The translations under genes were made by a program, and so were the position numbers. A DNA stretch of 64,000 nucleotides from Proales similis (taxonomy: Eukaryota > Rotifera > Eurotatoria > Ploima > Proalidae), in NCBI GenBank assembly GCA_019059635.1, contig JAGVRJ010000006.1, positions 1,736,001-1,800,000 of the forward strand. Direction: 5' to 3'. This document shows positions 6,894 to 52,550 of this stretch, piece by piece. Every line of letters starts with the position of its first letter. The first letter of the stretch is position 1. The notes below the pieces were generated by a model. That model searched no databases. It saw only the letters and a program-made list of their open reading frames with translations, and was not told where the DNA came from.

Positions 6894-8275
6894 GGAAACG
6901 TGCAACTGTTCTCCTTCTCTCACTCTGTCTAAACAAGCAACAAGAAAATTGTAAATGACACGCGATTGGAGTACAAAATCAGATCGAAATTTGTCTCGTG
7001 AGTCGTTCGGTCGCAAAGTGGAAAAGAAAGAACTAGGAAAAGGAGGAGGGAAAGAAAAGCGGGTTTCGCCTGAGTTAATGACTATATTAACGGGCTTGAG
7101 CAAGAGCGAGCGATTGAAGACACGCCACCAGCTAAAGAGCGGTTCGAGTTATAAACGACTGGCGCCGACATATGAGTTGAGAGCTCGCGCAAAGCGGCGC
7201 TGGCGAATAGACCTCATTAAATGCGCTTGGGCATTAAGGCGTAATTTTGATTGGCGATTGTTATGAGCTTGCAAAGCGGCTTTCAAAGTATACAACAATT
7301 ATAACAACAACAACAATAATATCAAGAATACGAGGAGAAGCTAGAGTGTCGAACGGGCGGCAGGATTTGCGTAAATATGCGCCATAATGATCAGAAGCGA
7401 TTAGAACACAGCATGCAACTGTTGAGAAATGAAATTAAGCCGGCTCGGTCAGCTGCGGTGGTAGCCTCTGCTCGCTACTTGACCGATACTTGGAAGGGTC
7501 TTAGCTCGGCTTGTACATGTCGTTTGTAATGAGGATGAGGCTTGAGCGAACAGGCGGCAAGCGAGCGCGACCGACAGCGGCGTCAAACGGGCGCGCGCCC
7601 TCAGAGCAATAATTGCCGAGTGGCTCACCTAGCTTCGTATCCTAATCAAAAGTATAAACTCGCACACACACACACACACACTCTTATCAAGCGTGCTAAT
7701 GACACCGCTTAGCAAAGATAACACACATAATCTCAAGCCAAACATTCTCTAATCATCATGGGGCGACGTACAGAGACCATATTTGCGGTACCTGAGCGCG
7801 CGAGTGCGAGATAAACGAGAACAACAACAGCGCGGCACAAGAGTAAAAGTGGAAATGTTAGAGTACGTGAGCAATCAGCATCCAAGCTACTTCGATTTAA
7901 GCAGCAGAAACTAGAACGTGAATGCGCGCCGTTCTCGCTATCGACAAAGCGGCAAAAAAGATTGAGACCGAAGAAAAAAAAGAAAGAAATGAGGCGAAAT
8001 GATTGAGTCGATTGTGGTGACGGTTTTGTCGCTCACTAGACGGAGTGAGCAAACAATCGATTGAAAAGCGCCAATGCGAACTAAAACGAAACTCCAGAGA
8101 GGCGGCCTGCACTGAGCTGATTGGCCGCTTTTAAGCAGAGCGTCTTGACAAATCAGCGCTTTGCTTCGACACCCGAAAATTACAATAATTATGTTAATGA
8201 TGCCAACCGCTCAGAGTCAATTCGTTGAGCTCTGCCTGAGAGGTGCAGCGACGCGTGAGCCATTCTTCACTATGT

Positions 8276-15148: not shown

Positions 15149-15960
15149 TTTCGTTTATCTGCTTGGCTTGGCTCGCTCTCTCAATCTAACCACCAGCGAT
15201 CTTTCAACGTTTGTTAGAAAACCCAAAGTAGAAAATTAGGAAAGCAGAAAACGAATCGCGTCGAGTTGAATTCAGGCACCGATAGAAAGATTGAATGGAC
15301 TCTGTAGTCGGCACCAATGTTTTGGCTTGCTTAGTTTGGTTGCCTATGAACCGTTCTTATAGAAAGCAAATGAGAGAATAACCGAATTTCTCGCTGCATA
15401 ATCAATTTTTACGCTTTAGAGTTCCATAATAAAAGTCACGGCTAGAAAAACTGAATGAGAAGCCGCCAAGACGTGTGTGTGTGCGTGTGTGTGTGTGATG
15501 CAGTTGCCATCCAGGACCTGACTTGGCCCTTCAAGCCCGTGTATTACAAATTGGCACCAATTTCTCTGTTTCCGAGTCAAGATTTAAATTATCACAAACT
15601 CTTGTACAGAACAAGAGACGAAATACTAAAAGAAGAATGGGCCAGAGAGCGAGAGCGGTAAGCTTTCAAAAATTCTGCCGGTCCGCTCTTGTACGCTTTT
15701 TTAATAATACTACGAGAGCAAGGCGATTATGTGAGGTAGGACGGTTACGTGATCAACCGTTGCCTTAGTGACATTCTCTTTACCTTTCTAAGCGCTCGCG
15801 TTGCTGTTTGCATACGCGTCGTGTGATACGAAAGAACACAGAGAGAGAGAGAGAGATGAGGAGAAATGATTGCATATCTTAAGCAGCCGCTCGAAATAAA
15901 ACTAAAACAAGAAATAGGCAGCAGCTTGCTGACCACTGTTCTTGTTCAAGCTGAGTCGAA
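15149..15960. other. intergenic region, no gene seen
   Basis: About 0.8 kb between divergent genes. It holds a (GT)n run near 15473-15498 and a (GA)n run near 15841-15856. Short open frames have no recognisable content. Confidence 0.5.
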
Positions 15961-15966
15961 CTCGAT

Positions 15967-17590
15967 AAGACTCATTGGCAGGCATCAATCGCTCTCTTAA
16001 ATTGGCCAGTTTTTGGCGCGAAAATAAAAATTCAAATGCCCGTATTGTCTACCGGTATATGCAGATTGAATTCAATCTGCTCTCACCGCGAGTTGAGTCT
16101 TCTCCGTTTAAGAGTTAAACTAAAGCCAAATAGAAAAACTAGAAATAGAAAGCATGAAGAACCTTATTGGCAGGTCATTGCTGAGCGTCTTGTTTGTTTT
16201 AGCCCAGCTCGTTTCTGCCGATCAAAGTGGAATAAAAGGTTTGATCAAGACTCGTTAAAACTCTATTCAACTAATTTCAACAAAACCTTCTGCCTCTATT
16301 CAGCTCCTGAATTCCTTGAAGCGTGGAAGCTGTCTGAGGGATACTACACTTCGTATCGTCAATCAGACATAACGTGTTCATTCAAATTCGATTCAATTCA
16401 GTTCATACAAGACGATTTAGAGCTGAAGCCTCAAATCAATCCCAAGCAGTTTGATGACCCCCAATTGGTTTTCATGAGTACGAACGAAAAAGAAATGGCG
16501 TCCCTTAGATTAACAAAGCAAACCAGAACTATTCTGCTCAATCTGACGTATTCAGTAACCAAATTCGATTTGTCGGGCAACATTAGAATAAGCGCCAACA
16601 GGCTGAATGACGTCAACTATTCGTGCTGCTTCCGAGGCTCAAGCGCGAATAAATCTGACTCGGTGTGCTCCCGGCTCGAGCTGCCTTTCAATCGCATTCA
16701 GAAATTCGATTACTCAAGCTATAGGGACAGTTACATTATTCGACAGCTAGCTAACTTTTCAAACACCTATAACATTTCTACAGACTTTAAGTTAAAATCA
16801 AGTTCAAGCCCATTTGAGTCAACTGATGAGAAAGAATTTTCAGACAACATTCCAGAAAAAATTCAATTCAGAATTTTCGTAGCACTTATCCTTTGGTTCA
16901 TCATTTTGACCACAGTTGGAGTCAAATGGGCCAATAAGCGCCGAAATAAGAGACTAGAGAGATTGTCGGCACCCGTTTGCATGGCTGAAGCTGGTCAAAA
17001 TCAGGAGTGCGTCTCCGCCAACAGCGCCATCTACTCTGTACTTATGCAACACATTCTTGAAAATAGGACTGTGCCTCAGCCGAAGAGCGATGACCTGCCG
17101 CCAACCTACGAAGAGTGTTCAGAGAGAAAGCAATCAGCCGACCATTATTGATAGATATCACTCTCCTTGACTTGTCCAGTCTATTGTTATCTTGATGTGC
17201 TTTTTATTTTATATTTTTGTAGTTTGATTTTTGTCTAGTCAAATAAAGTTTTTGTTATTTTGAGCACTTATTCACGCATAGAGCTCTTTCAGAGATGAGG
17301 AAAAGAAGCTGAGTGCGAAATGCAACTGAGACAAGAATAAAGAAAAATTGACAAGAAAGGCCAGGCGAAGAGAGCTCTCAAGTCAACGTCAAGTTATACT
17401 CAGTAAGACTCATTGTCAAACATCAATCGCTCTCTTAAACGGTGCAATTTTTGGCGCGAAAATAAATATCGATATGTCCGTGTTGTCTATCGGTACATGT
17501 AGATTGAATTCAATCTGCTCCCATACCGAGTTGATGTTTCTCCCAAGGCATGAACCAAAGCCAAAAAGAAAATCAAAGACACAAATCATG
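15967..17590 (+). repeat. direct repeat: duplicated 5' flanks of the PPxY membrane-protein genes
   Basis: The ~190-bp stretch ending at the first gene's start codon (15967-16154) is clearly homologous to 17405-17588 before the second gene. Both contain ATCAATCGCTCTCTTAAA-type and TTTTTGGCGCGAAAATAAA-type blocks and GATTGAATTCAATCTGCTC. The 3' flanks are also similar (near 17240 and 18280, AAGTTTTTGTTATT). This marks a tandem duplication of a whole gene unit, with the core promoter preserved in both copies. Confidence 0.8.
16154..17151 (+). CDS. type I membrane protein with cysteine-containing N-glycosylated ectodomain and PPxY tail
   Basis: Not recognised as a known family. Exon 1 (16154-16238) encodes a classic signal peptide, MKNLIGRSLLSVLFVLAQLV, in a different frame from the long open frame; a 65-nt GT-AG intron (16239-16303) restores frame into exon 2 (16304-17151). 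The mature ectodomain of ~190 residues has several Asn sequons (NLT, NYS, NKS, NFS, NIS) and paired Cys. A single membrane helix follows (IFVALILWFIILTTVGVKW), then a basic stop-transfer and a ~75-residue cytoplasmic tail ending in LPPTYEECSERK. The PPTY motif fits WW-domain ligands such as NEDD4-type ubiquitin ligases (family knowledge; target inferred). The longer single-exon reading from 16036 is rejected because the spliced form supplies a signal peptide. Confidence 0.75.
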
Positions 17591-18204
17591 AGGATTGTCC
17601 TAGGCCCAATATTGTTCAGTCTCTTGCTTATGGCCAGGTTTGGAAAAAAAATGGAAATTTGCTTTTTCTTGATCATCTTTTCTTGATCTCTTGTTAAAGT
17701 TCAAGCGCCGATAAATCGGTCTGCCCTCGGCTCGAGCTACTTTTCAATCACATTCAGACATTGAGTTATTTCAAATCTGGCGAAAGCCATTCGAAGGTCC
17801 AAGAGCTATTGAATCATTCAGAAGTTATTAAGTCTCTAAAAATGCGCAAGCTTTTACAACATATTTCAAATCAAGATGCATACTCAACAAACTCTAGTTT
17901 TATTAAAAGAGATGAAGCTCTATTTTATTCAACGTTAGTTTCGGTTGGATCGGTTATGATTATTAAACTGTGCTTCAAATGCTGGAGATGCAAGCTAAAC
18001 CCCCCAGTTCATACAGTTACGGTCCCTCTTTCTTTTATAGAAAACGGCCTACTTCGGGATAACGACCCTGACAATTGCATTATTGACTCGGTAGTTGTGC
18101 AGCAAAGAGTTGAAAATGCGCCTGTCCCGCAGCAAGAGTGCGACGAACCACCGCCCAGCTACGAAGAGTATTTAGAAAGAAAGAGATTAGCTGAACAGCT
18201 ATGA
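17588..18204 (+). CDS. shortened paralogue of the upstream PPxY membrane protein
   Basis: Tandem copy of the preceding gene. Exon 1 (17588-17637) encodes MRIVLGPILFSLLLMA, a signal peptide. A 62-nt intron (17638-17699) joins in phase to exon 2 (17700-18204), about 184 residues in all. Exon 2 starts at a point matching the last third of the sister ectodomain: SSADKSVCPRLELLFNHIQ here against SSANKSDSVCSRLELPFNRI there. The central ectodomain is therefore deleted while frame is kept. One membrane helix (STLVSVGSVMIIKLC) and a tail ending in PPPSYEEYLERKRLAEQL follow. Tail and PPxY are better conserved than the outside, suggesting the cytoplasmic interaction is the retained function. Either a working short form or an early pseudogene; open frame and intact splice sites favour the former. 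Confidence 0.65.
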
Positions 18205-28387: not shown

Positions 28388-29440
28388 TCAATAATAGGCG
28401 TAGGAGAGCGACTCGTGGTTGGAGGCGTCGTCGAAATTTAGCTGCTTTACGTCAAATTGGCTGAAATCAAACGCATTTGTTTTGAACTGATCGGCACTTG
28501 CTTCCACTGCCAGCGAGCTACTGGTGTCCGAATCGGTGGACAGTCGCACGTGGGTCTGTAGGTGTCGCTTTAGATTGCCAGACTGTGTGAAGCGTTTGGA
28601 GCAAACTCGACAAACGTACGGCTTTTCGCCCGTGTGTGTTCGCATGTGCTTTTTCAGCGTCGACGAGTCGCAGAACGAGTTGGGACACATGCGACACTTG
28701 TAAGTCTTTTCTTGCATGTGCGCTCGAAGATGCACCAGAGTGTTGGCCTGATTGCCGAACGTTTTCACTTTGAGAACAGATTAGAGTTTAGACTCACACA
28801 TTGACGAGTGAGTAATGAGCGACTTACGGCAGATGGGACACTGGGTCGAGCTTCCGTTGTTGTGCATCTTGTGCTGGTGCATCAGAAGTTTGGCGGCACC
28901 TGTAAATGTCATTTCACATAGATCGCATTTGAACTGCTTCTGTCCGGTGTGGTCGTGGCCTAGCTGCTCTAAATTAAGATCTTGATCGTCGTATTTTCTC
29001 ACCTTTGTTCGCTTGACCATCTTGCTTTGCTGTCTTTTGGACTCGGTCTCTTCAATTTCATCTGACCTGGCCCGCTTTGAAGGACGAGAGCTTTTCTCCG
29101 GAGATGGGATTGCAAGAGGTTGGGGTGGCTTGGGCACCTCCAAGTACACCTGCGGAGAGGCGGGATAATAATGAGGGGCTAGAGTGCCAGTGAACGAGTG
29201 ATAAGCTGAATCGTTGAATGAACTAGAGTAAGGTGAAGATGATGAATAAGACGAGTAAGGAAGAGAGCCCGAGAAAGGTGTTGTGGCGAAGCGACTCTCA
29301 TTGAACGAATAGTGAGACTGAGAAGTCGAAGGTGCCGGGGAAGAGTAAGCCGAGCGGTAGTCATAACCGTAGGGACTAGAGTATGCCGAATAGGCATAGG
29401 CCTCTGGATAAGAAGTCATTGCATTGAATTGCTGCTCCAT
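28388..29440 (-). CDS. C2H2 zinc-finger transcription factor, Glass-like
   Basis: Two exons, 29440-28828 and 28767-28388, join across a 60-nt intron to about 330 residues. The N-terminal 110 residues are Tyr/Ser-rich (many YSS/SSYS repeats), typical of activation regions. A basic stretch (SKRQQSKMVKRTKVRK) precedes four C2H2 fingers: CDLCEMTFTGAAKLLMHQHKMH, CPICLKTFGNQANTLVHLRAHM (made by the splice), CRMCPNSFCDSSTLKKHMRTH and CRVCSKRFTQSGNLKRHLQTH, with the last two joined by TGEKPY linkers. Fingers 3-4 resemble the last two fingers of Glass ([26 protein letters not shown]), and the gene lies directly downstream of glass on the same strand. I infer an old tandem duplicate or a Glass relative; function unknown. 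Confidence 0.82.
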
Positions 29441-30241
29441 TTTGTGGACGGTCTGGAAAATAAAGAGTTAGGGCGATGCGAGAGTGTTCCAATGATGCTC
29501 GAAGATCTGTATTGATGGGAGGGAATGGGATTCGATATTTATACGAAGACGATAGTTGGCATTGCTTCGCAAGGGTTTATTTCAATTTCATGAAATTCGT
29601 TAATAGCACAAAGGGAGAGAGAGAGCGGCACGGTCTTGGCGGTGGTGAGGTGCGACGCAATCTCGATTGAAACTTAATTGATTATCAAAGCAGCGCGCCC
29701 GAGACACGAGCAATCACATGCGAAGCTCATGCTCGTCCAACTTTTGAACTGCAACACGAGGCGGTGCAGACTCAAAGGTTCTGCCAGTTGCTCAGGCTGA
29801 CTGGCAATGTCAATCGTTGTTTATGGCTAATTGCGAATCTTAGACCGGACGCCGACTCAGCTCTGATCGACACTGGCTTGGCGGATTAATCATCGACGCA
29901 GCCCAATCAATTAAGACCGCAGACCGCCACGCTCTACTCTGCTGCGAGCCCGGTCGAATGGACCACTGACGTCTGCACAACAAATTCATTTATTGGCGAG
30001 ATCACAAGAAAAAGTCAAACGTGAATGCGAAAACGTTACAAAAAGCACTAAATTACGAAAACAAAAAATAGCTCACTAGAGGATCTGAAAAAGAAGATTC
30101 ACACAACAACAGCTCGACGATTAAATATTTAAGACAATGAGACAAGGGTTGGAGGTGGTCAGCAGTGAATGGCTCTTTTTGTTTATGCCATTTGGAAGAA
30201 GAGGAGGACACTGTGAGAAGCAGACTCGCTCTGTGTTGTCT
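29441..30241. other. intergenic region between the two zinc-finger genes
   Basis: About 0.8 kb, non-coding. It contains the Glass-like promoter region and the glass 3' flank. No conserved open frame. Confidence 0.5.
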
Positions 30242-32292
30242 CTAATCAACGCACTCCATTTTCTTCATGCCGAACAGCTGCTGTCGTAGTTGAAATTGAT
30301 GCGCGGCCGCCATGCTCGAGTGTGACGAAGACGCATTTAAATAGGGATTGCTCGGATTCGGGTTGAGACTGAGATGGCCGCTGGAGCCGAAATTTGAACT
30401 GAACGCTTGATTGCCGAATGGTAGAGAGTGGTGCATTGCATGAGCTGGCTGCTGCTGTTGCTGGAACTGCAGCTGTTGGTGGTGGTTTAAAAAGAGTTCA
30501 TCGTGACTTTGATGCGGCAAGAACTGATGTGGCTGAGCCAAGTGCGAGCCGGACAGATTGGACGAGCCGGTGTAGAACGAATGGGTTTGACCGATTGACT
30601 GCTGATTGAAGTACTGGTGTGACTGATTAGCGTAGGCATGCTTCATGGGCGAAGCGGACGAGTCGTTCGACTCGTCGTGCTCGTCTTCCTCTTCTATTGT
30701 GCTCTTGAGCCAACTGGGATGAGAGAGCATTCCACTCTGCGAACCTGTGCCGTTTGGCTGCTGCTGCTGCTGCTGCTGTTGATTCGCCTGGTTCTGGTGT
30801 ATGCGCATGTGTCTGTTCAAATTGCCCGACTGTGAGAATCGCAACTGACACAGCTGACACTGGTACGGCTTTTCGCCGCTGTGCACTCTCATGTGCTTGG
30901 TCAGAGTCGACGAGTCGGAGAATGCTTTGCGGCAGTATTTACAACTAAACGTGAACAATAAGACTCTGCCTGTGATTTAGAGCTTGAGTAGGGTTGACTT
31001 ACGCGTAGGGCCGCTCCCCCGAGTGCGTTCTCATGTGCGTAGTGACCGACGAGCTTTGCGAAAAGCGACGACCGCATATTTCGCAGGAAAAGGGCTTCTC
31101 GCCGGAGTGCGTGCGCAGATGAGCGGTCAAGTTGGCCGCCTGTGTAAAGGCCTTGTTACACTTGTCGCACTTGTACGGCTTTTCGCCCGAGTGAGTTCGC
31201 ATGTGCGTTTTGAGAGTGCTGGGCCGGGCGTAAGTCTTGTCGCAGATCTTGCAGCGATTCACTCGACCTTCGCCGCTCTTGGCAAGTGTGCTGGCCTCCG
31301 AGCTGAGCGATGATTTCATCGATGAAGTAGACGCTGTCGACGAGCTACTCGGCACCGTAGAAGCGCCGAAAGAAGACGCCATGCCGACACTTTTGACCAA
31401 TCAAATTAGAGCGATCTGATTGGCTGGCAATTTGCCGGCGCGCTTACCTCTTGCTGTAGTCGTTCAGAAACGATGGCTGATAGTACTTTGAAGAGTCGTT
31501 CTGCGAATAGTCGAAGCTCTGAGCGCCCGGGTTCAAATCGCCCAGGTGAGGCAGCGAGAACATGTGACGATGAAAATGTGAATTTCCGTACGGATACGAC
31601 GAAGAGCTGGCGGCAGCCGCTGCCTTGGCCATTTGAATCGGATCTGGCACGCCGACGTTTAGCGCCGATTGATACATTGCGGCCACCATGGCCGGATTGG
31701 GCGCCGGACTCGAGCTCGAGTTTATCGGCGGTGACGTCGATGCCGAAGTTGCTGACGACGAGGAAGAGGGAGGACCCAAAGGCGCCTGGCTTGTCCCAGT
31801 TGAGTAGCCGGCCTGGTTTAGTTGGGACATGTAACTGTCGGTGTCCACTTGTTCTGTTGCTCCACCTGGACCACTCTGCTCATGTCCTGTCGTACTTTGG
31901 TAGGCCCTTGAATTAAAACCGCTTGGTGCCGCATAGTAGGACTGTGCACTGGCCGAAGATGGGCCGCTGCTGAATGGCAGCTGTTGTTCGAGCTGATTTG
32001 ATCCGAATTGCGAATACTCTGGCTGTCGGAACATGCGATTATCGTTATTGGCCGCTCTGAAGTCGATCGGTGGCGCGAATGCCGACGAATTGAACGAATT
32101 GGAGGCTGCAGCGGCTGCATAGAACCCGGCCAAATTCTTCAATGAAGCCACCGATTCATTCTCGTGGCTGGTGTCCAAATGGTCGCGTTCGCTCTTTAGA
32201 GCTTTGGGAGCGACAGGCGACGGACTCGAATTGGCATCGGCCGCATCCGCATTGGATCCGACTGAGCCGTTGCTTGACACTTTGGCGAACAT
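30242..32292 (-). CDS. gl: Glass transcription factor (photoreceptor determination)
   Basis: C2H2 zinc-finger activator required for photoreceptor differentiation in Drosophila. Exons 32292-31448, 31389-31003 and 30944-30242 join in phase to about 644 residues. Five canonical fingers lie in a row: [84 protein letters not shown] and [21 protein letters not shown], joined by SGEKPY-type linkers. Recognition helices ([35 protein letters not shown]) match Glass by recall. Exon 2/3 splits finger 4 just before its first Cys. The N-terminus is Ser/Ala-rich; the C-terminus is Gln/His-rich with a poly-Gln tract. The ATG at 32292 is the first in frame; the frame stays open upstream to an AAG that could be an acceptor, so a 5' coding exon may be missing. 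Confidence 0.92.
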
Positions 32293-35200: not shown

Positions 35201-37544
35201 AGTCAGGCTGCTCTTTTAATTAAAATTCAAGGCACGCTTCAAAAGCGTTGTTTTGCCTTATGAGACACATCGCTTTGGATCAAGTCAAGTCAGCGGCATC
35301 TCAATCGCAAGCTAGAACCAAGCTAAGCCGTCTAGAATAGAGCGAGAGTGGCGGAATGGCAGATAGAGCTCGTTTGCCGACGCCGTGCAATATAGATTGC
35401 TCAGAACGAACGGGACCGATAAAGAGACGCTGATGAGTCGCTAATAGAGAAATTCCGCTCGTTTAATTAATTTTGCCGCCTTGAGTCGAACGGCGTCTCC
35501 TATCAAGTTACCCATTTTCTCCGCGTCCAATCAATTTGCCGCTTCGAAGGCTTCTGCTTAGGCTGGCAATTGATAAGTAACATGTAGAATGGCGACTGCT
35601 AAGGTATCTCATTGTTTTCGCTCGTTCGCACAAAGAAAGAAAATGGATTCGAGCTGAGCTAAGCTGCAGGCAAGTAAATTAGAATCGAGCAGAGATTTTG
35701 TGTTCTCACTCTGGTCACAGTTTCTATTCGCTCAATCTGCGTCTCCTTTTTCTCTCTCTCTCTCGCTCTCTTTCTTGAAACGTCACTTATTCGTCGCGTT
35801 CGATAGGGCTTCACTTTGGCACAGTTCGAAACGAATGCTTTGCTACAGAGAGGAGCACACGTTGATTTAGACCAAGTGGGCAGCATTGTCCGCCAGTGCC
35901 CTGTACCGCCGCCAAGCGTGCGGTCAACGTAGAGCCAACTGGTGTCCGTATTTTCTTTGGCCCGGCCAGAAACTATTTTATTTTCGTAGCCAAATCTAGG
36001 TCCAGTGGCCGTTCATATACAAAAAAATACAAAAATGATCAGCAGCGCAAATGCGGCCCGGATCGCATTCACAGTCGCTCGCTCTCTTGTGCAAATAGAT
36101 TTCTATTCAATTTGCTCAATCGGTCTTTGGCATCGTTTTAATCGATTAAATTGCTTTCGATCTATTCTATGAATACGCACTCAACCGGCCCGGGCGCCTA
36201 CTCCATGCCTGCCGATTGTTGTTTTCTGGTCTCTTGTGTTAAGTAAACTTAAACATCGCAAATGTTATTATTTTCTTCGAAATTCCGATGCGCAAGTGTG
36301 CTCGCTTGATTCTTTCTCGTCCCTTTTATTTCGTTGTTATTCTTATTTCTTTCTATTTCCATATACACAGGCAGGCCCAATTTTGGTGCGCTTGCTACTC
36401 AAAGGACGAAGGATGGCTGCAATCTAGCGCCCGCTTAGACTCATACGACACCGCAGATTCAGTCGGGCGGTCAGGTTCTGGAGCGTCCCCGAGGGTCACA
36501 TGGATACTAATTCATGTTACCGACGCAAGTCAACGCCCTGAAGAAAGAGTGACACGTCGTTTCTTGAATCTTCTCGCACGTGGACTCATGTTTGAGTAAA
36601 CAGGCGAGATCGACGGTCAGCGAACAAAAGACGGCCTCGGAAAATGTTTGAAAAAAATATAATAGGTAATTTGAAGTGCCGAAGCCCTCGTGCTGCTGAT
36701 CTGGTCCAATTTCGGCCGTTCTGCAAACATTAACTTTGTTTGAGAGTCAGGCTGATATGAATAAAAAGGGCCGAGCCTCTCGCCTTATTTATTTGCCATA
36801 TACTACCTTTACCGCGACCCTGACTGCTCGTTCTAAAATTCAAGACGATATGAGCAAATAGTGCGTCAGCAAACACGATCGACTCATTGAAACAAAACTT
36901 TCCACTTTCTGCTCAATTTTGTTCGTACTCACTCATAAATGAATGCTTGTGAGTGTGAGTTCTGGCAGACTCTGATTCGTTTAATTAAATTTCAGAGCGA
37001 AATAAATGTCAGAGCACATCTCTAATGCGTGCCGGAGCAATATGGAAAATCATTTGTGACAGAAGGAAACTTAGTGCCGCTCTTGGTCCATAGTCCAAAT
37101 ATTCGTCGCCAATCGGCCTCTGCGAATGCCATTCGACTCTTGAGTAGTGTGCCATGCACTCTTTCCGCTTCTAAGAGCTTCCATTTGAGCAGGAAAATGG
37201 GCCAATCAGAACTCGGTTGGAATTAAAGTTTGTTTGGATTAATCAAATGGACCGAGTCCACATTGGCAGCAAACAAAAAGTGTTTCTCTACATCTGCCAC
37301 TGATTGAGCGCCAAAATGGAGGGCTCTAATCGACCTGGGAAAGTTTCTAGCAGACCGCATTGCAGGGCCAAAGTTAGGTTTTCGGGTAAATTGTGAAATG
37401 GAAAAGGAAATGTTTTTCAATAATTTATTATCATTCGGTCGTAATGTCAATTATCGGCTGAGTTCTAAATGAATGATTCTGCTCATATAAAAAAAGAATG
37501 ATTTTTTTTTTTATTTTTCGCCGAGAGAAAAGCTAACAGATTAA
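32293..37544. other. large non-coding region upstream of glass
   Basis: About 5.2 kb without supportable genes. It includes a compound (GA)n(GT)n microsatellite near 32384-32425, a (CA)n run near 34563-34582, GA-rich tracts, and many TAATTA/AATTA sites. Open frames are short and lack domains or splice context. Likely cis-regulatory DNA of glass; the far end may include 3' UTR of the neighbouring p85 gene. Confidence 0.5.
32384..32425. repeat. compound (GA)n-(GT)n microsatellite
   Basis: GA dinucleotides followed by GT dinucleotides within ~100 bp upstream of the first Glass coding exon. If an intron or promoter lies here the repeat could vary between individuals. Confidence 0.7.
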
Positions 37545-40500
37545 TCAAAATGAATGAAAAGAGTTGAAGGCATACAGAAGAGGCGAGTCGAGCTTTACCT
37601 CCTCCGTGCTGATCGGGTGTTGTGAATAAAAGTGCACCAGCTCGGCCAGAGAGGCGAATACAGGCGTCTCTTCAGGCAGCTTGGAGTCTTGGCTCAGAAA
37701 TGAGCTTTCGCGCGAGCTCTCTCTCGAAGAGCCAGTTTTCAGATAGAAGCCCTCTTGGCTGTGATCAATTAACAAATGAACAACTTTGTCCTGGTGCTTA
37801 AGACTCAGCGCGTATTTGCAGTCTTGATAGCTCGACGGCCGAATGAGAAAGGTGCCGTTCTTGCGATTAGACAGAAGCTGAATAGACTTTTGGCGGTCGC
37901 AGTCGTGGACGAGCCACTCGTCATCGTCGCTTGGCTGCGTCCTTTTTTGACGCGGCGAAGATGGACTCGATTTCATTTGAGCGTCCGATTCGAGTTTATT
38001 CGACTGTTCGTCGACTGCCATGTCGCTCATTGATATAGAATGAACGACGTTTGACGAACTCTCGCTCGCTTTTCGACTGCTCGAGTCGCCAATCGAGCTC
38101 ATCGACTCAGAGACTTTCACAGCCGACTGAATTTTCTCGTCGCTCTCGCCGCGCTGAATAAGCCACATGTGATAGTTCTCGCGCTTCTTGCCCAACTCAA
38201 TGAGCTCTGGCTTAATAGAGTCGAGCTCCTCTTGAAGCTGATTGATCACAATGTTCAAATAATCAATGTCCGAGTTGACGCTCTGCTTTTGCGCTTGAAG
38301 TTCCTTGATTTTCTGGCTCAGTGATTGTCGGTTGTCTTCGAGCTTCTTCTCCAGTTCGCTCAGGTCGCTGAACGCCGGCTTCGAGTTGGCCGGCATCAGT
38401 TGAGAGACCAATGCTGACGTGGCAGACAACCGCCTTGTTCGCTTGTACAGCGTGTCCGTGTACGTCTTCTCCAGTTTCTTTAGCTGCTCGTTGTAAATGT
38501 GAGTGATTTTATCGAACGCCTGACAAGCCAGTTTCTTCTCGCGCAAATCCTCTCTGACCGCTTTAATCTCATTCTCCAGATTGTCGCTCTTCTGATTGAG
38601 ACCGTCAAAGGCCTGGACCGCGTCGCGAAACGCCTTGTACAATTGACTCGTGCTCCACTCGTTCGTCTTGCCGTACTCGTATTTTGACACTCCGTAAGTG
38701 AGCACCAAGTCTAACGCGTGGTTGTACTCTCTCAGAGAGATTCTCGAATAGTAGGCGATCAACGATTGAACCGAGTCGAATCTGCACGGCTTGTCAATAT
38801 CGAACAGAGGCGTTCCTTTGCCTGACTCTTGCCTGAAGATCTTTATCGACTTGGCAATGCCGCCTTTGGTCACACAAAGTGTGTACGGAGCTGACCGATC
38901 TCGGTCAGTCGAGTCTCTGATGAGAAAACTGCCGTCAGGGCCATTCTTGAGCACGAGCATGGTGGCGTCTCTCGATATGTCCTTCCAATACCAGTCGGCG
39001 TCTTCTAGCGAGTCTGACTTGAGGCTCGAATTGGACGAGACTGACTCAATGCTGGTGTTTGCTTTTGCTTCGCTCAGCGTCCGCTTAGGCCGAATTCTGT
39101 AGTCGGGCAGCTGATGGCCCCAGTCGCATTCGAATAAGAGACGCTCGATTACGAGCGCTTGCTTGTCAATGTTGCTCACTATTTCGCAGATGCGGTGCCA
39201 AGGCGGCCGAAGCAGGATGGAGCGGAATATGTGAAACATCTTGTCCGGCTTGTAGTGGCAGTCGTGCACCGTGAACTGATAGGCGCACACTTTGGTCAAA
39301 TGGGCCATGACGAAGGCCAGCGTGTCCTTGTGATATTGGTGCATTTCGTGCTCGATGATTTGCTTCAGTTCGCTTGTGCTCATTCGTTCGATGTTGTTTA
39401 CAAGTCGGTCGTAGAGTTCTTCGGGTATCACGCTGTTCTGAAGGTCTCTGAGGAAGGCTTTTATCAGCGCGGCGATCGTGTTCAAATCGAACTCGTCCAT
39501 TTGAACCAGCTCGACTCCTTGCTCGTCTATGCGCTGCTTGATGGCGTCCACCAGCGAGCTGTCCGAGCTGAGTCTATACACGTCGTACAGATCCTCTGAA
39601 GTTTTTCGCGATCGATCTTCGATTGCACTGAACGCTTTTACTAAAAGCCTGGGCACGTTTTTGCACTCTTCAGACTTGGAGCGCATCTTCTCGTCGCTGA
39701 TCAAGTCGAACAGACTGACGCCGAAGACGAAATGCCGGCCTGGCACACAGGTCTTGGGCTCGCAGGCGACCAGGCCAGTGCATGAGCATTGACGGTGCAC
39801 AAGGAGTCCGCATCGTTGACACATTAGGCCTTGGTGGACAATGCCGAGCAGGGGCCGTTTGCAGATGTTGCACTCGGTCGGTCTGCACACAGTGTGAAGC
39901 AAAAAGTGGTGATTCTCTGCCCGATAGGAATGAGTGACCAAGTGCTGCTTGAGTTGCTCTAATTCGTTCAAGAGCTGATTGAACGAGTTGTAGTTCTCGG
40001 ATCGGTAGGCGAGCTCGTCGCGAGCCTCTAGAATCGCTCTCTGGTGAAACTGGTCTCGAATGCGATACGCGTACAAATTGTGAATGTCGAGCTTAAGCAG
40101 TTTTGAGCCGTCTATCTCGTAGTTGGCGAACACTTCGGCGTATCGGTGAAGATTGATCACCGCCAGCCAAAGTCGAACGTCGTTCACTGACCAGCTCTTG
40201 ACTGGCGACCAACTTGAGTTGGAATACTGGTCACAGTCATGCACCGGCTCGCCTTCTTCGATGCATTCGCTGCTCTGAACAAACAGCTTGCAGCGGGTGT
40301 GCACGTGCCGACTGCATCTGACACAGCCCAGGCCCAAATAGCCTTCGCCCCACACGTAGTCTCCGCAGTGGGCGCATAGCACCGGCCGTTTAAAAAAGCG
40401 GATCTGAAACGAGTGCTTCTGTTTCTTGCTTCTCACCAGGGCGCCGACCGATGCGTTCGGACTTGCGTTCAACTCGTAGTTTACCTCGACGTATTCGTTC

Positions 40501-40577
40501 GACACCTTATTGCGACTCTCCTCTGCCTTACTCATTTGATTCAACCTACTGCATGGTTTCTCAATGCGTTGCTGCAT
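37545..40577 (-). CDS. PI3-kinase regulatory subunit (p85 type) with C1-SAM-C1 N-terminus
   Basis: Class IA PI3K adaptor that binds phosphotyrosine and restrains/stabilises p110. One uninterrupted 1010-codon frame. Domains in order: C1 zinc finger (~55-104; H-x12-C-x2-C-x13-C-x2-C-x4-H-x2-C), SAM (~127-190; WSVNDVRLWLAVINL), second C1 (~223-272), RhoGAP/BH (~285-480; NVPRLLVKAFSAIE, AFLRDLQNSVIPEELYDRL), nSH2 (~527-625; DADWYWKDISR, GSFLIRDS), inter-SH2 coiled coil (~640-830; LDSIKPELIELGKKRENYHMW, as in p85 SIKPDLIQLRKTRDQYLMW), cSH2 (~905-1000; WLVHDCDRQKSIQLL, GTFLIRPSS). Both SH2 FLxR arginines are present. Vertebrate p85 begins with SH3; here there is none. Start 40577; a second Met at 40535 would not affect domains. 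Lack of introns among intron-bearing neighbours suggests intron loss or retroposition. Confidence 0.92.
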   Translation of the reverse strand: MQQRIEKPCSRLNQMSKAEESRNKVSNEYVEVNYELNASPNASVGALVRSKKQKHSFQIRFFKRPVLCAHCGDYVWGEGYLGLGCVRCSRHVHTRCKLFVQSSECIEEGEPVHDCDQYSNSSWSPVKSWSVNDVRLWLAVINLHRYAEVFANYEIDGSKLLKLDIHNLYAYRIRDQFHQRAILEARDELAYRSENYNSFNQLLNELEQLKQHLVTHSYRAENHHFLLHTVCRPTECNICKRPLLGIVHQGLMCQRCGLLVHRQCSCTGLVACEPKTCVPGRHFVFGVSLFDLISDEKMRSKSEECKNVPRLLVKAFSAIEDRSRKTSEDLYDVYRLSSDSSLVDAIKQRIDEQGVELVQMDEFDLNTIAALIKAFLRDLQNSVIPEELYDRLVNNIERMSTSELKQIIEHEMHQYHKDTLAFVMAHLTKVCAYQFTVHDCHYKPDKMFHIFRSILLRPPWHRICEIVSNIDKQALVIERLLFECDWGHQLPDYRIRPKRTLSEAKANTSIESVSSNSSLKSDSLEDADWYWKDISRDATMLVLKNGPDGSFLIRDSTDRDRSAPYTLCVTKGGIAKSIKIFRQESGKGTPLFDIDKPCRFDSVQSLIAYYSRISLREYNHALDLVLTYGVSKYEYGKTNEWSTSQLYKAFRDAVQAFDGLNQKSDNLENEIKAVREDLREKKLACQAFDKITHIYNEQLKKLEKTYTDTLYKRTRRLSATSALVSQLMPANSKPAFSDLSELEKKLEDNRQSLSQKIKELQAQKQSVNSDIDYLNIVINQLQEELDSIKPELIELGKKRENYHMWLIQRGESDEKIQSAVKVSESMSSIGDSSSRKASESSSNVVHSISMSDMAVDEQSNKLESDAQMKSSPSSPRQKRTQPSDDDEWLVHDCDRQKSIQLLSNRKNGTFLIRPSSYQDCKYALSLKHQDKVVHLLIDHSQEGFYLKTGSSRESSRESSFLSQDSKLPEETPVFASLAELVHFYSQHPISTEEVKLDSPLLYAFNSFHSF

Positions 40578-42408: not shown

Positions 42409-43128
42409 TTATTTCTTTGAAAATTCCATTCGCTCAACTTTAAGATCGCCGTCGATCAGTTTGTAAATGTAGACGATTATTGTGTTTGTTTGAATGTCCA
42501 TGAGAACAAACGACGGCGTGCTCGAGCTTGGAGAAACAAATCGCTCAGAGGTTAGATGGCGCTGAGTAAAATTGGACGCTTACTGCTGCAAAGGACTGAA
42601 AGCGCCCGTGGCTGAGCCGGGATTGATGAAAAATCGTCCATCTTCTTCGAACGCTTCAAACTGGTGTGTGTGGCCGGTGATGAGCACGTCGACATCAAGC
42701 TGTCTCTCGTACATGGCCAGACTTTCTTTGTCGCCCCACGGCACTATTTGATGACCGTGTGTGATTCCGATTCGAAACTGACCGACTGTGACCACCTTTT
42801 GTTCGGGAAATTCGCCCATCTGAAATGAAAATGCTCTTGAATCGAATTGAAGCTTGTTGTCGCTTGCTTCGGCTCTTACGTCGTCAAAATCGCCTCGAAC
42901 TACATGCACATCGTTTGCCAGTGACTTGAGGTAATCGAGCGTTTCCTTGTTACTCAGATTGCCTGTGCACAGAATGTGCTGAATCCTGCCCGGCACAAGA
43001 AGACTCTTGAAGCGCTTGGGCAGACCATGAGAACGATAGGGAATGTGCAAGTCACCGATGACCAAGACCAGCTTGACGTGGTTAATTAAAACGCCTCCAG
43101 ACCCTGAAATTAAGGCTGAACTTACCAT
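42409..43128 (-). CDS. VPS29: VPS29, retromer subunit
   Basis: Metallophosphoesterase-fold subunit of the retromer/retriever coats that recycle endosomal cargo. Exons: 43128-43126 (ATG alone), 43071-42880, 42819-42584 and 42526-42409, giving 182 residues, the human length. Landmarks: [87 protein letters not shown], and the terminal exon [14 protein letters not shown] ending VERMEFSKK. The first intron follows the initiator codon directly. The second intron (42879-42820) is 60 nt, in frame and stop-free; reading through would insert 20 residues absent from the family. Metal-ligand positions (GDLH, GHTH) are kept. Confidence 0.93.
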
Positions 43129-43378: not shown

Positions 43379-44869
43379 TCAGAGAAGAATCGGATTCGGT
43401 GTTATTTCTACAGTTGCTTGCGAATCTGAAGATTTAGGGATTACGGTCAAATGCAGAATGCTTGTCGACTGGTTGAAATTGTAGGCCAAATTTGAGCTGA
43501 CGCTAACGTGGAAGCCTTTTGGGTAAACGTGACCGGGAACAAATATGTCCGTGGAAAGGTCTGAGTCAAGATTTGCAACAAAAGAGAACTCAAATTCTCG
43601 GCTTGTTGAGTTGAAGAACATTTTAGTTGGCGCTCCGTCGATGGCTTTGGCGAAGACGCGCGAGAAAATGCTCAGCAGCTGTGGATCCGGGTTGAACGTT
43701 GCATCGTACAGGTCGGAGTCCCAATATGTCCACGATTGAAAGTGCAAGTCAGCGGCGTCGAGAATAAACATGCACTCGTCCAGATTGCTCGTGTTGTTGA
43801 AGCGGTAGATGCAGGTGCCGAACTCGGTCAGAAACGAGGCAGCACCGCCAATCCTTTGCATTTCAGTCTCAACCGTTTGGAAATAGGTATTGAGCTGCCA
43901 ATCTTCGCAAAACTGCCGCACGAACGCAGGAAGGGAGCCATTGACAAGTGGATGTTGATCAAGATCCAGTAGCCAACAGTAGAAATGCCACGAGAAGACT
44001 GTTCTGCCGACGTCTGAGCGAGGCGCATGTTGAAATCCGGTGCCGAGAGCAAGGCCGTTCGACATGAGGCTCCAAGTGACCGGCTCATAGAAGACAAGCG
44101 TGTCCTGGTCAAACTCTCTAATGCGATCGTAGACGCGGTCGTAGAGCGGCATTAAGTTGGTACTGTCCGCTACGCCGGGAAGAACCAGCAAAGGATCGGA
44201 GTAAATATCTCCGGCCCAAGGCTCGTTTATGAGCTCGTAGCCGAGCACAGAAGATTCGTTGGCAAACAGTTGCGCTGTGGTTGTCCAGAATTGCTGGAAA
44301 TAGCTTTCGAAAGAGCTCACATTGTGGTACAGTGATTGGAAAGCAGATCCACATGCTTCAGTGGCGTATGCGTTGAAGCCGAGATCTTTGCGCTTGAACG
44401 GCCACGGATACGGGTGTTTGGGCGCAGGCAGTTTGTCCACAAGCCAGCGCGGCACTCCGTCGTAGGATTCAAATTCACTCGACATCATGTCCTGATGCAT
44501 GTCCAAGATGACAAATATTCCGCGTCGGGCGAGGTCGTGCACTATTTGACGCATCTCGCTCACATAGCTCATGTTGAGCTGATTCTCTTGCGGGTAGAGA
44601 CCGGACCACATGAAACCGAGCCGAATTACATTAAAGCCCCACTTTTGCAGCAAATCCAGATGAGTGGCATTTTTTAAATTATTATGCCCTGAGTTGGGGA
44701 TCCAGGGGTGACTCTTGCGAACGGCATTCAAACCGTGAAATAATAAAACCCGACCACTCTGATCAATAAATTGACCATCTCTGATTCTGACCTTCTCCAG
44801 ACAAGTCGAGTATCTCACCAGCCCACTAGCCCAACACAATAGTAACAGTGCCAATGCCGATGCACGCAT
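43379..44869 (-). CDS. secreted glycoside hydrolase family 5, endoglycoceramidase-like
   Basis: Predicted to cleave the oligosaccharide-ceramide bond of glycosphingolipids. Single exon, 496 residues. Signal peptide (MRASALALLLLCWASGLV). GH5 core: LLFHGLNAVRKSHPW, WGFNVIRLGFMWSGLYP, FVILDMHQDMMS, LGYELINEPWAGD (acid/base Glu ~216), FSWHFYCW, and ASFLTEFGTC (nucleophile Glu ~349). The D-M-H-Q-D and NEPWAGD blocks and the large insert before 'PWPFKRKDLGFNAYATEACG' fit endoglycoceramidases of Rhodococcus/Hydra type (recall). A C-terminal beta domain follows the barrel; several N-glycosylation sequons are present. Intronless among intron-bearing neighbours, compatible with ancient transfer or intron loss. 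Cellulase-type GH5 is the alternative, judged less likely. Confidence 0.83.
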   Translation of the reverse strand: MRASALALLLLCWASGLVRYSTCLEKVRIRDGQFIDQSGRVLLFHGLNAVRKSHPWIPNSGHNNLKNATHLDLLQKWGFNVIRLGFMWSGLYPQENQLNMSYVSEMRQIVHDLARRGIFVILDMHQDMMSSEFESYDGVPRWLVDKLPAPKHPYPWPFKRKDLGFNAYATEACGSAFQSLYHNVSSFESYFQQFWTTTAQLFANESSVLGYELINEPWAGDIYSDPLLVLPGVADSTNLMPLYDRVYDRIREFDQDTLVFYEPVTWSLMSNGLALGTGFQHAPRSDVGRTVFSWHFYCWLLDLDQHPLVNGSLPAFVRQFCEDWQLNTYFQTVETEMQRIGGAASFLTEFGTCIYRFNNTSNLDECMFILDAADLHFQSWTYWDSDLYDATFNPDPQLLSIFSRVFAKAIDGAPTKMFFNSTSREFEFSFVANLDSDLSTDIFVPGHVYPKGFHVSVSSNLAYNFNQSTSILHLTVIPKSSDSQATVEITPNPILL

Positions 44870-49578: not shown

Positions 49579-50791
49579 TTAGCAAAATGTGATTCGATGA
49601 TTAAAGTAGTTCTCAATGTTCATTTCGCCCGGTATCTTTGAGTTGCCGATCACCAGCGAGCCGACACACATCGCCTGGTACGCGTTCAAATCCTGCGCCA
49701 TAATCACGCCCAGCTCGCGCAGGCTCTGATTGCCTTTGATTTAAATTCGATCAGATAGTGGACGAGCTCGTGTCGAGAATTGAGACAAGTACCGCCAATG
49801 TCACCGTATTCAGGCCTTGTTCCTCCAAATTTACAGTTCGTGACGAGAATTACTTTCACTCCGTGCTGAACGGCCTTTTTCATTGCCCAGTACATTTTGT
49901 CGGACACGTTGCCGCCTCCGTATCCAATGACCACAATGGCCTTGTGGTTCTTGACGAGAGGAGTAAGCAGCTCTTCAGTTGCTCCCGGAAACGCTTGCAC
50001 AATTGGCACCGGCTTCAACTGGTCGGGCAGCGGAATAATGCTCGCCTTGCTGCTCTTGTTGAGCCATTCGATGTAGTCGCGATGCATCATTCCGATCACG
50101 CCCATGCGTCCGCTGCTGAACGGATCTTGCCGGATTAAACACGTTCGGCTTAGAAACGTGATGGCGTAGATGGCGAACGCCACTTGATCTTACCGACTGC
50201 GAACGAATGCTCTTTGTAGATAAAGGTCGGACTGTGAATCTTATTGGCGAAATTGATTGAGACTCCGCTCGCGTAATCTCTGCATGCCGCATTCTCAACT
50301 TGTTTTATCGAGTTTATAACATTGGCCAGACCGTCCGAGTTGTGGTCGTCGTCAGCTCTACTTGAGCCGGTAACCACAATCGGCTTTCCATGTGCATAGA
50401 TGCATCTGTGCAGGAAGTAGGCGGTGATCTCAAGAGTGTCGGTGCCATGGATGATAATCACGGCTGCGATCAGTCGATCCCTAATCATCATTTGTGCCAG
50501 TTCAAATGAGGCTTAAGAGCGCATACCTGAGCTAGCCTGGCAGTTGACTTTGCGTTGCACAAGTTTGGCCAGCTCGTGCAAGAACTCAAGGTCAATTGAG
50601 CTCGAGTCCATGAGGGAGAACTCGGTGAGCTCAAGCTGATGGCTGCTGGTCACCTTTTTAATTCGTTCATAAAACTCGTTGGCGTCCAACAGAGGCAAAT
50701 AGCATTTCTTGCTCTCGTCAAAGCGCTCGAATATCATTCCGCCAGTGACGATTATTGAAATTTTCTGTTCCATTTTCTCACCGAATCGCAT
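49579..50791 (-). CDS. L-asparaginase homologue lacking the first catalytic threonine
   Basis: Member of the bacterial-type asparaginase fold (amidohydrolase releasing aspartate and ammonia). Exons 50791-50527, 50463-50194, 50125-49793 and 49733-49579 join to about 340 residues, aligning gap-free in key blocks with the upstream paralogue. Preserved: HGTDTLEITAYF with the second catalytic Thr and Asp, GVIGMMHRDYIEWL, IGYGGGNVSDKMYWAMKKA, GNQSLRELGVIMAQDLNAYQAM. Changed: the first active-site motif reads VTGGMIFE instead of TTGGTI; the Met codon is at 50737-50735. In the family that Thr is the nucleophile, so hydrolysis is probably lost. Frame and splice sites are intact, arguing against a simple pseudogene. 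Start at 50791 or 50773. Confidence 0.82.
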
Positions 50792-51001: not shown

Positions 51002-52086
51002 TCATTTGTTGGTAAAATAAACCTGCAGATTAGACTGGTCAACAGAAGGGTTGTCAATGGTCAACGATGCGACAATCATGGCTTGAAACGCATTCAAATC
51101 GTCGGCCATTATAACTCCTAAATCCTTGAGACTCTGATTGCCTTGTCGATGAGAAAAATTAGACGAGCTGGGTCAGTTGATACTTGCTGCTGAAACTTAC
51201 CTCCAACGCCGCCGTACTCGGCGTAAATGCCACCATAGCGGCAGTTGGTGACCAAAATTACGCGCAGGCCGGCTTCAGTCGCCGACTTGACCGAGTTGTA
51301 CATGTTTTCGTTGACATTGCCGCTGCCGTAGCTGACGATTACGACCGCGCTGAATTTGCCAACGTAGCCGTCGAGGAAGTCTGGCGTGCAGCCCGGAAAA
51401 GTGTAGAGAATGGGCACTGAGGCGAGCTTGTCGGGCAGAGGAATGAGCTTTGATCTTTTCGGATTGTTCAGCCAGTCCACTCGGTTGGTGTGCATCATTC
51501 CGATGACACCATAGTTGCCGCTGGAGAACGGATCGATGGCGAACGAATGCTCTTTGGACACGTGGATCGGACTGTGAATCTTGCCCGCAAAGTTTATTGA
51601 AACGCCGTAGCCAAAGCTGAGCGAGTCCGGATTGGAGACTTGTTTGATCGAGTTGCTGATGTTTGCTTTGCCGTCGTAGTCGCTGTTGGTCACCACTCTC
51701 ATCGCGCCGGTGATCACAATCGGCTTCATTGAAGCGTTTATGGCGCGATGCAAGAAGTACGCAGTGATCTCCATTGTGTCGGTGCCGTGCACGATCACAA
51801 TCCCGTCCACATATTCGTCGTTTATTTTGCATTGGACCAACTTGGCCAAGCCGACAAGAAAGTCGAGATCAACTGCACGTGAGTCGATCATTGCATACTC
51901 GACCAGCTCGATTCTTTCCAAATTCACTTCGGAGCCGACCGACTCGATTAGCTCGCGTCCGCTTGTCTTGGGCACATAGCCGCCCACAGATTCGTCAAAT
52001 TTTTGGACTATTGTGCCGCCGGTGGTTATCACCACAATTCGAGCGTTGCCCGACAGTGACGGAAAGCGTCTCACTCTCCCTTCCAT
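51002..52086 (-). CDS. L-asparaginase (bacterial type I/II fold)
   Basis: Hydrolyses L-asparagine to aspartate. Exons 52086-51201 and 51141-51002 give 341 residues. Active-site motif 1 is ITTGGTI with the nucleophile Thr at residue 25; motif 2 is IVHGTDTMEITAYFLHRA. Other family blocks: KPIVITGAMR, DGKANISNSIKQ, GVSINFAGKIHSP, KEHSFAIDPFSSG, VVIVSYGSGNVNENMY, VILVTNCRYGG, GNQSLKDLGVIMADDLNAFQAM. No signal peptide or ankyrin tail is seen, unlike the vertebrate lysophospholipase/asparaginase fusion, so probably cytosolic. The neighbour at 49.6-50.8 kb is a tandem duplicate with two extra introns and a damaged active site; this copy looks catalytically competent. Confidence 0.9.
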
Positions 52087-52550
52087 CTGCTTGTTGCTGC
52101 TCTCCCACTGGTTGACTCGTTCGGTCTCTTGTTCAGCTCTGGCAAGCTCTCCCTCTCTCTGTGCTTGACTTTGCCCGACTTTTTATCGATTTGCCGTCTC
52201 TCTAAAAATTCATAATTTTAAAGGCAACACTGTTTGGCTGGCATTCGCAGAGTATAGAACGCTGCATCTGCTGACGTCAAAACTAAATCGAGCTCAGGCG
52301 TGCTCTGATTGTCTGAGAGCAGCAACACAACAACAACAGGCGTGTGGCAGCGATTTCAATTCAAATACTCTATAGCCCACTCTCACAGTAGAGTAGAAAG
52401 CGTGACCAACAGTTTCCTTCAATAAAACGCACTTTCCTGCTTTCATTCACTTTATTTTCAAGCGAGATGGGCAATAAAGTTCGGCGGCGGTGAGTAAAAC
52501 TAGCGAGAGAGAGAGAGTTTATGATCCGCCGTGACGTCTAAAATCGCATT
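52087..52550. other. spacer between asparaginase and STKLD1
   Basis: About 460 bp. It holds the asparaginase promoter region and the STKLD1 3' flank, with a short (GA)n near 52503-52516. No gene seen. Confidence 0.4.

What the first reader, a model, noticed from the sequence alone, without database searches (positions are those of the whole stretch)
37545..40577. PI3K p85 subunit whose SH3 is replaced by C1-SAM-C1
Seen: one 1010-codon frame encodes two complete C1 zinc-finger patterns, a SAM domain between them, then RhoGAP, SH2, p85-type inter-SH2 coiled coil and SH2. Known: vertebrate p85 begins with SH3; Drosophila p60 has neither SH3 nor RhoGAP. I recall no described p85 with C1 and SAM domains. 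Inference: the subunit could be recruited by diacylglycerol/phorbol-type lipids or SAM polymers, linking PLC output to PI3K. The gene is also intronless.
Basis: partly seen in the sequence, partly recalled or inferred. Interest (0 to 1): 0.82.

Follow-up and report, generated by a model that had tools for sequence, protein, structure and literature searches.

The report
Rotifer PI3-kinase subunit with ancestral domains
A tiny rotifer carries a PI3-kinase regulatory subunit with two C1 zinc fingers and a SAM domain that the human protein lacks; the same layout is found in many invertebrate groups, so the human form is probably the trimmed-down one.

Summary
In detail: the minus-strand frame 40577-37545 encodes C1a-SAM-C1b-RhoGAP-nSH2-iSH2-cSH2 in one intronless 1010-codon reading frame. 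Contig sizes identify the rotifer Proales similis. It is the only p85-type gene found there; a p110 with adaptor-binding domain exists.

Relatives with RhoGAP, C1 and SAM occur in molluscs, a nemertean, spiders, a millipede, an ant, echinoderms and a hemichordate. In 22 of 28 aligned rows outside the rotifer-type clade an SH3 precedes the C1/SAM region, against 0 of 16 inside. So the likely ancestral bilaterian p85 was SH3-C1-SAM-C1-RhoGAP-nSH2-iSH2-cSH2; rotifers lost SH3, and human p85-alpha has no room for C1-SAM-C1. A 2025 shrimp paper already reports two C1s and a SAM in p85.

Phorbol/DAG recruitment is doubtful: the essential Gln is aligned in only 2 of 44 C1a rows, the strictly conserved Pro in only 1 of 44 C1b rows. 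That one is this protein.

The parts
37545..40577 (-). p85-type PI3K regulatory subunit, single 1010-codon intronless frame (Met1 at 40577; alternative start Met15 at 40535)
   Evidence: relatives' start
40263..40415 (-). C1a (residues 55-105): all zinc ligands, P11, W22, G23, G28 kept; Q27 is Leu
40011..40202 (-). SAM domain (residues 126-189); nearest solved SAM is diacylglycerol kinase delta, E 5e-6
39762..39911 (-). C1b (residues 223-272): all zinc ligands; P11, G23, Q27, G28 present, W22 is Leu
39117..39653 (-). RhoGAP (BH) domain (residues 309-487) with arginine finger R335, K373 and R377 (their catalytic role is recalled)
38748..38993 (-). nSH2 (residues 529-610) with the FLxR arginine R554
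38121..38663 (-). p85-type inter-SH2 coiled coil (residues 639-819), the p110-binding part
37578..37922 (-). cSH2 (about residues 886-1000, limits approximate) with FLxR arginine R913 and a Ser-rich insert
37510..37515 (-). AATAAA on the minus strand about 30 nt past the stop, possible poly(A) signal
   Evidence: read from the sequence; not tested

Best explanation
This is the single class IA PI3K regulatory subunit (p85 orthologue) found in the rotifer Proales similis. It keeps the old bilaterian layout C1-SAM-C1-RhoGAP-nSH2-iSH2-cSH2 and has lost the leading SH3, as have all 16 rows of its clade in the alignment. Shown by sequence and model: the domains, their order, their conservation and the presence of a p110 with the adaptor-binding domain. 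Inferred from the p85 family: iSH2 binds and stabilises p110, and the two SH2s dock on phosphotyrosine motifs of receptors. Inferred and less sure: C1b plus SAM, which between rotifer-type and other rows are about as similar as nSH2, form a membrane-proximal adaptor that adds a second contact (anionic lipid or protein through C1b, self- or partner-association through SAM), rather than a classical phorbol/diacylglycerol switch.
For: Domains and fold. Closest solved proteins are human p85-alpha chains, E 2e-45, colinear over RhoGAP-nSH2-iSH2 plus cSH2. One p85-type locus in the genome: 1 of 7 matches covers the whole query, the other 6 are short C1 or C1-RhoGAP matches. ABD, E 1e-17, and RBD lie in one 357-aa frame. 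Of 44 aligned rows 44 have RhoGAP, C1 and SAM, 43 SH2, 40 iSH2. The quick tree from the RhoGAP-to-cSH2 part alone follows animal phylogeny (SH-aLRT): rotifer-type clade of 16, 100; arthropod-type 7, 97; molluscs and nemertean 10, 99; ambulacrarian-type 10, 100 (unnamed rows are in each group). Mean identity between rotifer-type rows and the rest: SAM 0.40, C1b 0.41, nSH2 0.42, RhoGAP 0.31, iSH2 0.20. No SH3_2 match near the gene in its own genome.
Against: No expression, binding or structural data. The relatives were collected by words from the whole window protein or from N-terminal parts, which favours proteins with C1-SAM and may raise their C1/SAM similarity; the frequency among all p85s is not measured. 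Among the rows outside the rotifer-type clade nSH2 (0.74) is clearly more conserved than SAM (0.52) and C1b (0.54). C1a is eroded in places: 12 of 44 rows lack at least one zinc ligand in the alignment. Eight shorter p85 rows left out of the 44 show no SAM, and three of them no C1, by precomputed Pfam. P0029 sits on a very long branch and its place is unsure.
Confidence: 0.9

Rival explanations
1. The C1 domains are true diacylglycerol/phorbol sensors that bring PI3K to membranes where PLC is active.
For: C1b of this protein has all four residues named as strictly conserved in DAG-sensitive C1s (Pro241, Gly253, Gln257, Gly258 in PKC-delta; PMC9110374): P, G, Q, G. G23 and Q27 are kept in 44 of 44 C1b rows. 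C1a keeps P11 in 39 of 44 and W22 in 41 of 44.
Against: C1a has Q27 in only 2 of 44 rows (P0029 and, in a longer loop, P0036; 2 more rows have a gap there). C1b has P11 in 1 of 44 rows (this one) and W22 in 0 of 44; here W22 is Leu and F13 is Glu. The same genome's chimaerin-like C1 (L011) and L013 keep P11, W22, G23, Q27, G28. So a conserved DAG switch is unlikely; a weak or lineage-specific one is not excluded.
Confidence: 0.15
2. A newly fused, rotifer-specific chimera: C1-SAM-C1 replaced the SH3 by domain swapping.
For: SH3 is not found in 16 of 16 rotifer-type rows; C1a begins 3-67 residues from the N terminus in 15 of them, and the sixteenth (P0009) lacks C1a.
Against: The same C1-SAM-C1-RhoGAP order exists behind an SH3 in molluscs, a nemertean, spiders, a millipede and echinoderms.
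Confidence: 0.02
3. Two neighbouring genes (C1/SAM and RhoGAP-SH2) read as one by chance or misassembly.
For: None found.
Against: One frame without stop over 1036 codons; the same fused order in many sources, among them the single JGI proteins P0002 and P0007.
Confidence: 0.01
4. C1-SAM-C1 is mainly an oligomerisation and autoinhibition module, with SAM polymers or C1-RhoGAP packing controlling the subunit as in chimaerin or DGK-delta.
For: Nearest solved SAM is DGK-delta (E 5e-6), then Shank2; nearest C1-RhoGAP is N-chimerin (E 4e-19). That these SAMs polymerise and that chimaerin is autoinhibited is recalled.
Against: Sequence similarity of SAMs says little about polymerisation; model pTM is 0.55, so domain packing is not resolved.
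Confidence: 0.3

Closest known systems
Invertebrate PI3K regulatory subunit alpha-like proteins with SH3-C1-SAM-C1-RhoGAP-SH2-iSH2-SH2 (e.g. Amphiura filiformis P0026, Argiope bruennichi P0038, Lineus longissimus P0043)
   Same: Same C1-SAM-C1-RhoGAP-nSH2-iSH2-cSH2 order; the 28 rows outside the rotifer-type clade are 26-32% identical to the window protein
   Different: These three carry an N-terminal SH3, absent here; their iSH2 lacks the insert seen in the window protein (for Amphiura)
Brachionus p85 (P0004 B. calyciflorus, P0005 B. plicatilis)
   Same: Same domains, no SH3, 46-47% identity over 94-95% of the query
   Different: C1b lacks P11, which the window protein has
Penaeus vannamei PI3Kp85alpha (PMC12817958)
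   Same: Described as having two C1 domains and a SAM absent from human p85
   Different: A shrimp protein; its sequence was not examined here, and its SAM is called N-terminal
Human p85-alpha (PIK3R1)
   Same: RhoGAP-nSH2-iSH2-cSH2 colinear, E 2e-45
   Different: No C1 or SAM matched; the RhoGAP match starts at chain residue 128, so with an SH3 of about 80 residues in front (recalled) there is no room for about 220 residues of C1-SAM-C1
Chimaerins
   Same: C1 followed by RhoGAP, colinear match E 4e-19
   Different: Single SH2 before C1, no iSH2, no SAM (recalled); P. similis has a separate chimaerin-like frame (L004, judged by eye)

Membership tests
Class IA PI3K regulatory subunit (p85) | p85-type inter-SH2 coiled coil | tested here: met
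   PF16454 62.2 bits over cut-off 31.5; model matches p85 niSH2 structures
Class IA PI3K regulatory subunit (p85) | Two SH2 domains flanking iSH2, each with the FLxR arginine | tested here: met
   Two SH2 stretches; R554 and R913
Class IA PI3K regulatory subunit (p85) | Partner p110 with adaptor-binding domain in the same genome | tested here: met
   PF02192 E 1e-17 and PI3K_rbd in one frame; binding itself not testable here
Class IA PI3K regulatory subunit (p85) | RhoGAP/BH domain of long p85 forms | tested here: met
Class IA PI3K regulatory subunit (p85) | N-terminal SH3 of long p85 forms (not universal in the family) | tested here: not met
   No SH3 in the frame or near it (SH3_2 model only)
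DAG/phorbol-responsive C1 domain (C1a) | P11, G23, Q27, G28 (PKC-delta Pro241, Gly253, Gln257, Gly258) | tested here: not met
   Q27 is Leu; criterion from PMC9110374
DAG/phorbol-responsive C1 domain (C1b) | P11, G23, Q27, G28 | tested here: met
   P, G, Q, G in this protein, but P11 in only 1 of 44 rows, and W22 is Leu
DAG/phorbol-responsive C1 domain (C1b) | Ligand binding | not testable with these tools
   Needs a binding assay
Chimaerin | SH2-C1-RhoGAP with a single SH2 and no iSH2 (layout recalled) | tested here: not met
   Two SH2s and iSH2 lie C-terminal to RhoGAP
RhoGAP with catalytic activity | Arginine finger and supporting Lys/Arg (recalled criterion) | tested here: met
   R335, K373, R377; the position of the further Asn/Thr appears to be Ile (by eye); activity itself not testable here

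The most novel reading that the evidence does not exclude
The ancestral bilaterian class IA PI3K took a second membrane or polymer input through a C1-SAM-C1 module in p85, whose SAM and C1b are, across the rotifer/other divide, about as conserved as the phosphotyrosine-binding nSH2. The human line lost it, so work on human p85 has missed an original control of the pathway. In Proales the SH3 was lost and C1b alone among 44 rows carries the full set of strictly conserved DAG-contact residues, which could make PI3K there directly DAG-responsive.
Probability: 0.2. Interest if true: 0.65.

Novelty: new member of a known kind. Interest (0 to 1): 0.4.

Why it matters
Textbook p85 (SH3-RhoGAP-SH2-iSH2-SH2) appears to be a derived, stripped form. 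In sampled protostomes and ambulacrarians the subunit carries C1-SAM-C1 in front of RhoGAP, usually behind an SH3. The shrimp paper reads these domains as features that may help a crustacean virus; the survey here shows that they are far older than crustaceans. It also gives a direct test: does a C1/SAM-bearing p85 respond to lipid or oligomerise, and what was lost on the human line?

Tried and rejected
Rejected: SH3 replacement (SH3 coexists with C1-SAM-C1 elsewhere); gene fusion or misassembly (single frame, same order in relatives); a hidden SH3 exon upstream (one search lists 41 SH3_2 matches in the genome, none near C6:1776577; only the SH3_2 model was run genome-wide, so a divergent SH3 is not excluded).

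Led nowhere: a search with the Amphiura C1-SAM-C1 region alone found only itself and P0034 (2 hits among 227 candidates). Paper searches for p85 with C1, SAM or evolution terms: 1 paper listed; none; 2; 8; 10 of 15 listed; none. Of these listings I opened only PMC12817958 and PMC7458397 (passages); the rest were seen as listings. The library lacks most subscription papers, so this is weak evidence that the bilaterian distribution is not in print. The residue-name search gave nothing useful; PMC10002858 (passages) added nothing needed.

Not established: vertebrate, cephalochordate, tunicate and cnidarian p85 do not appear by name among the hits. Because candidates are chosen by shared words, this says nothing about absence there; only human p85-alpha was tested, by its solved chains. 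Drosophila p60 lacking these domains is recalled. VIA-align rows barely tested C1-SAM-C1, so no fold claim for that part rests on them.

SH3 caveat: 12 of the 22 SH3-positive rows were the seeds of the profile, chosen by eye. Pfam's SH3_1, SH3_9 and SH3_2 match 15, 10 and 9 of 44 rows at E up to 0.01; of seven non-rotifer rows scanned only Amphiura passes a Pfam SH3 cut-off and Mytilus matches below it, so several mollusc SH3s rest on my own profile.

Rows dropped before counts: of 52 p85 rows (window protein, P0002-P0032, P0034, P0035-P0053) 44 went into alignment A3. P0014, P0018, P0019, P0027, P0028, P0030, P0031 and P0032 were left out as shorter forms; by precomputed Pfam three of them show neither C1 nor SAM and five show C1 without SAM. 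The other 42 hits (1, 41) list RhoGAP or C1 but no iSH2 and were not used.

Full report

Where it comes from. The host assembly has 15 contigs and 32,716,893 bases. Its contig C1 is 3,837,811 bases and the window's contig C6 is 2,428,301 bases. The table in PMC11954553 (passages seen) gives for Proales similis 32,722,929 bases, 15 scaffolds, largest 3,837,811, N50 2,428,301 and GC 45.51%; the window's GC is 46.6%. I take the organism to be Proales similis, a monogonont rotifer. The genome search shows one full-length match to this protein; the other six are short matches in C1 or C1-RhoGAP regions. A p110 with adaptor-binding domain (E 1e-17) and Ras-binding domain in one 357-aa frame is present, so the expected partner exists.

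How common the layout is. A search with the window protein scored 7990 candidates and returned 32; one with an eight-protein alignment scored 7375 and returned 61, of which 20 are p85-type. Named carriers of RhoGAP, C1, SAM, SH2 and iSH2 include Brachionus (rotifers), Haliotis, Gigantopelta, Mytilus, Biomphalaria, Patella, Saccostrea and Littorina (molluscs), Lineus (nemertean), Argiope and Oedothorax (spiders), Chamberlinius (millipede), Wasmannia (ant), Amphiura, Acanthaster, Patiria, Lytechinus, Apostichopus, Anneissia and Antedon (echinoderms) and Ptychodera (hemichordate). Of 44 aligned rows, scanned one by one, 44 have RhoGAP, 44 C1, 44 SAM, 43 SH2 and 40 iSH2. Eight shorter p85 rows of the 52 were left out; three show neither C1 nor SAM and five show C1 without SAM by precomputed Pfam. 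Because candidates are chosen by shared words, these numbers do not measure how frequent the layout is among all p85s.

SH3. A profile built from 12 N termini finds an SH3 in 22 of 44 rows, the 12 seeds included; Pfam's SH3_1 matches 15 of 44. On a quick tree made only from the RhoGAP-to-cSH2 columns (591 kept), the 16 rows around Proales and Brachionus form one clade (SH-aLRT 100) with 0 of 16 SH3; outside it 22 of 28 rows have SH3. Outside the clade, arthropods, molluscs plus nemertean, and ambulacrarians each form a supported group, unnamed rows included, so the gene appears inherited vertically; P0029 stands alone on a long branch. The simplest reading is an ancestral bilaterian SH3-C1-SAM-C1-RhoGAP-nSH2-iSH2-cSH2 protein, loss of SH3 in rotifers, and loss of C1-SAM-C1 on the line to human p85-alpha, in which the RhoGAP match starts at chain residue 128. 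I could not test other chordates or cnidarians.

What the module may do. C1b keeps all eight zinc ligands in 42 of 44 rows and C1a in 32 of 44. Between rotifer-type and other rows the mean identity is 0.40 for SAM, 0.41 for C1b and 0.42 for nSH2, against 0.36 for C1a, 0.34 for cSH2, 0.31 for RhoGAP and 0.20 for iSH2, so SAM and C1b look constrained. Within the other rows nSH2 (0.74) is well ahead of SAM (0.52) and C1b (0.54), which tempers this. PMC9110374 (passages seen) names Pro241, Gly253, Gln257 and Gly258 of PKC-delta as strictly conserved in DAG-sensitive C1s, and Leu250, Trp252 and Leu254 as the deepest-inserted hydrophobic residues. In C1 numbering, C1a keeps P11 in 39 of 44, W22 in 41 and G23 in 40, but Q27 in only 2 of 44 (2 more rows have a gap there); C1b keeps G23 and Q27 in 44 of 44 and G28 in 39, but P11 in 1 of 44 and W22 in none. 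The one row with P11 in C1b is the window protein. As an internal yardstick, of the 12 best of 27 C1 matches in this genome five have all four residues (L011 chimaerin-like, L013, L020, L021 and this C1b, L018); L012, which misses by position because of a one-residue loop insert, also contains QG; this protein's C1a (L017) does not. A conserved phorbol/DAG switch is therefore unlikely; a weak or Proales-specific one stays open. The SAM is closest to that of DGK-delta (E 5e-6) and C1b-RhoGAP to N-chimerin (E 4e-19). From this I infer a membrane-proximal adaptor and association role, unproven. The RhoGAP keeps the arginine finger in 37 of 44 rows, K373 in 44 and R377 in 43, so weak GAP activity is possible.

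What was known. PMC12817958 (J Virol 2025; passages seen) says Penaeus vannamei PI3Kp85alpha has two C1 domains and a SAM that human p85 lacks, and speculates that they help a shrimp virus. PMC7458397, a review of class IA regulatory subunits (passages seen), has no match for 'C1 domain', 'invertebrate' or 'Drosophila'. My searches of the open library brought up no title that announces the layout's spread over Bilateria; most listed papers were not opened, so this is weak evidence only.

Intronless. The single frame shows it for Proales. P0002 (1050 aa) and P0007 (1090 aa) come from JGI contigs as single proteins; if those were called without introns, as is usual for metagenome contigs, the genes are intronless too (inference).

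Verdict. A real, well-observed protein; not a new kind. It is the rotifer member of a widespread invertebrate p85 type whose existence is little noticed, and the interesting part is evolutionary: the familiar human protein is probably the reduced one.

Noticed in passing
window 49704-50512 and 51118-52182, minus strand: Two neighbouring L-asparaginase genes or gene pieces (51118-52182: PF00710 and PF17763; 49704-50189: PF17763; 50150-50512 by eye); they resemble bacterial enzymes by eye, so lateral origin could be tested.
   Followed up: partly
window 43379-44869, minus strand: Glycoside hydrolase family 5 with GH5_C domain (endoglycoceramidase-like, name recalled), one open frame, with a possible signal peptide by eye.
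   Followed up: partly
window 42580-43128, minus strand: Calcineurin-like phosphoesterase resembling VPS29 (name recalled) in one open frame; whether it is complete was not checked.
   Followed up: partly
window 3578-7148 and 28388-32292, minus strand: A T-box gene (Tbx2/3-like, by eye only) and C2H2 zinc-finger genes (zf-C2H2 found for 30999-31400) with long low-complexity stretches.
   Followed up: partly
window 15955-17151 and 17698-18204, plus strand: Two tandem, apparently related frames (first one without Pfam match; second not scanned) ending in PPxY motifs (PPTYEE, PPSYEE): possible membrane proteins bound by Nedd4-type ligases.
   Followed up: partly
P0051 (ant) and P0034, C1a region: In these rows no SH3 was found and C1a is strongly rearranged, while SAM and C1b stay; P0034, unnamed, groups with the ant protein: perhaps a second, independent shrinking of the N terminus.
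   Followed up: partly
RhoGAP of P0026, P0029, P0034, P0037, P0039, P0049, P0051: Arginine finger replaced (K, I, C, H, H, H, H), so GAP activity may have been lost several times in invertebrate p85.
   Followed up: partly
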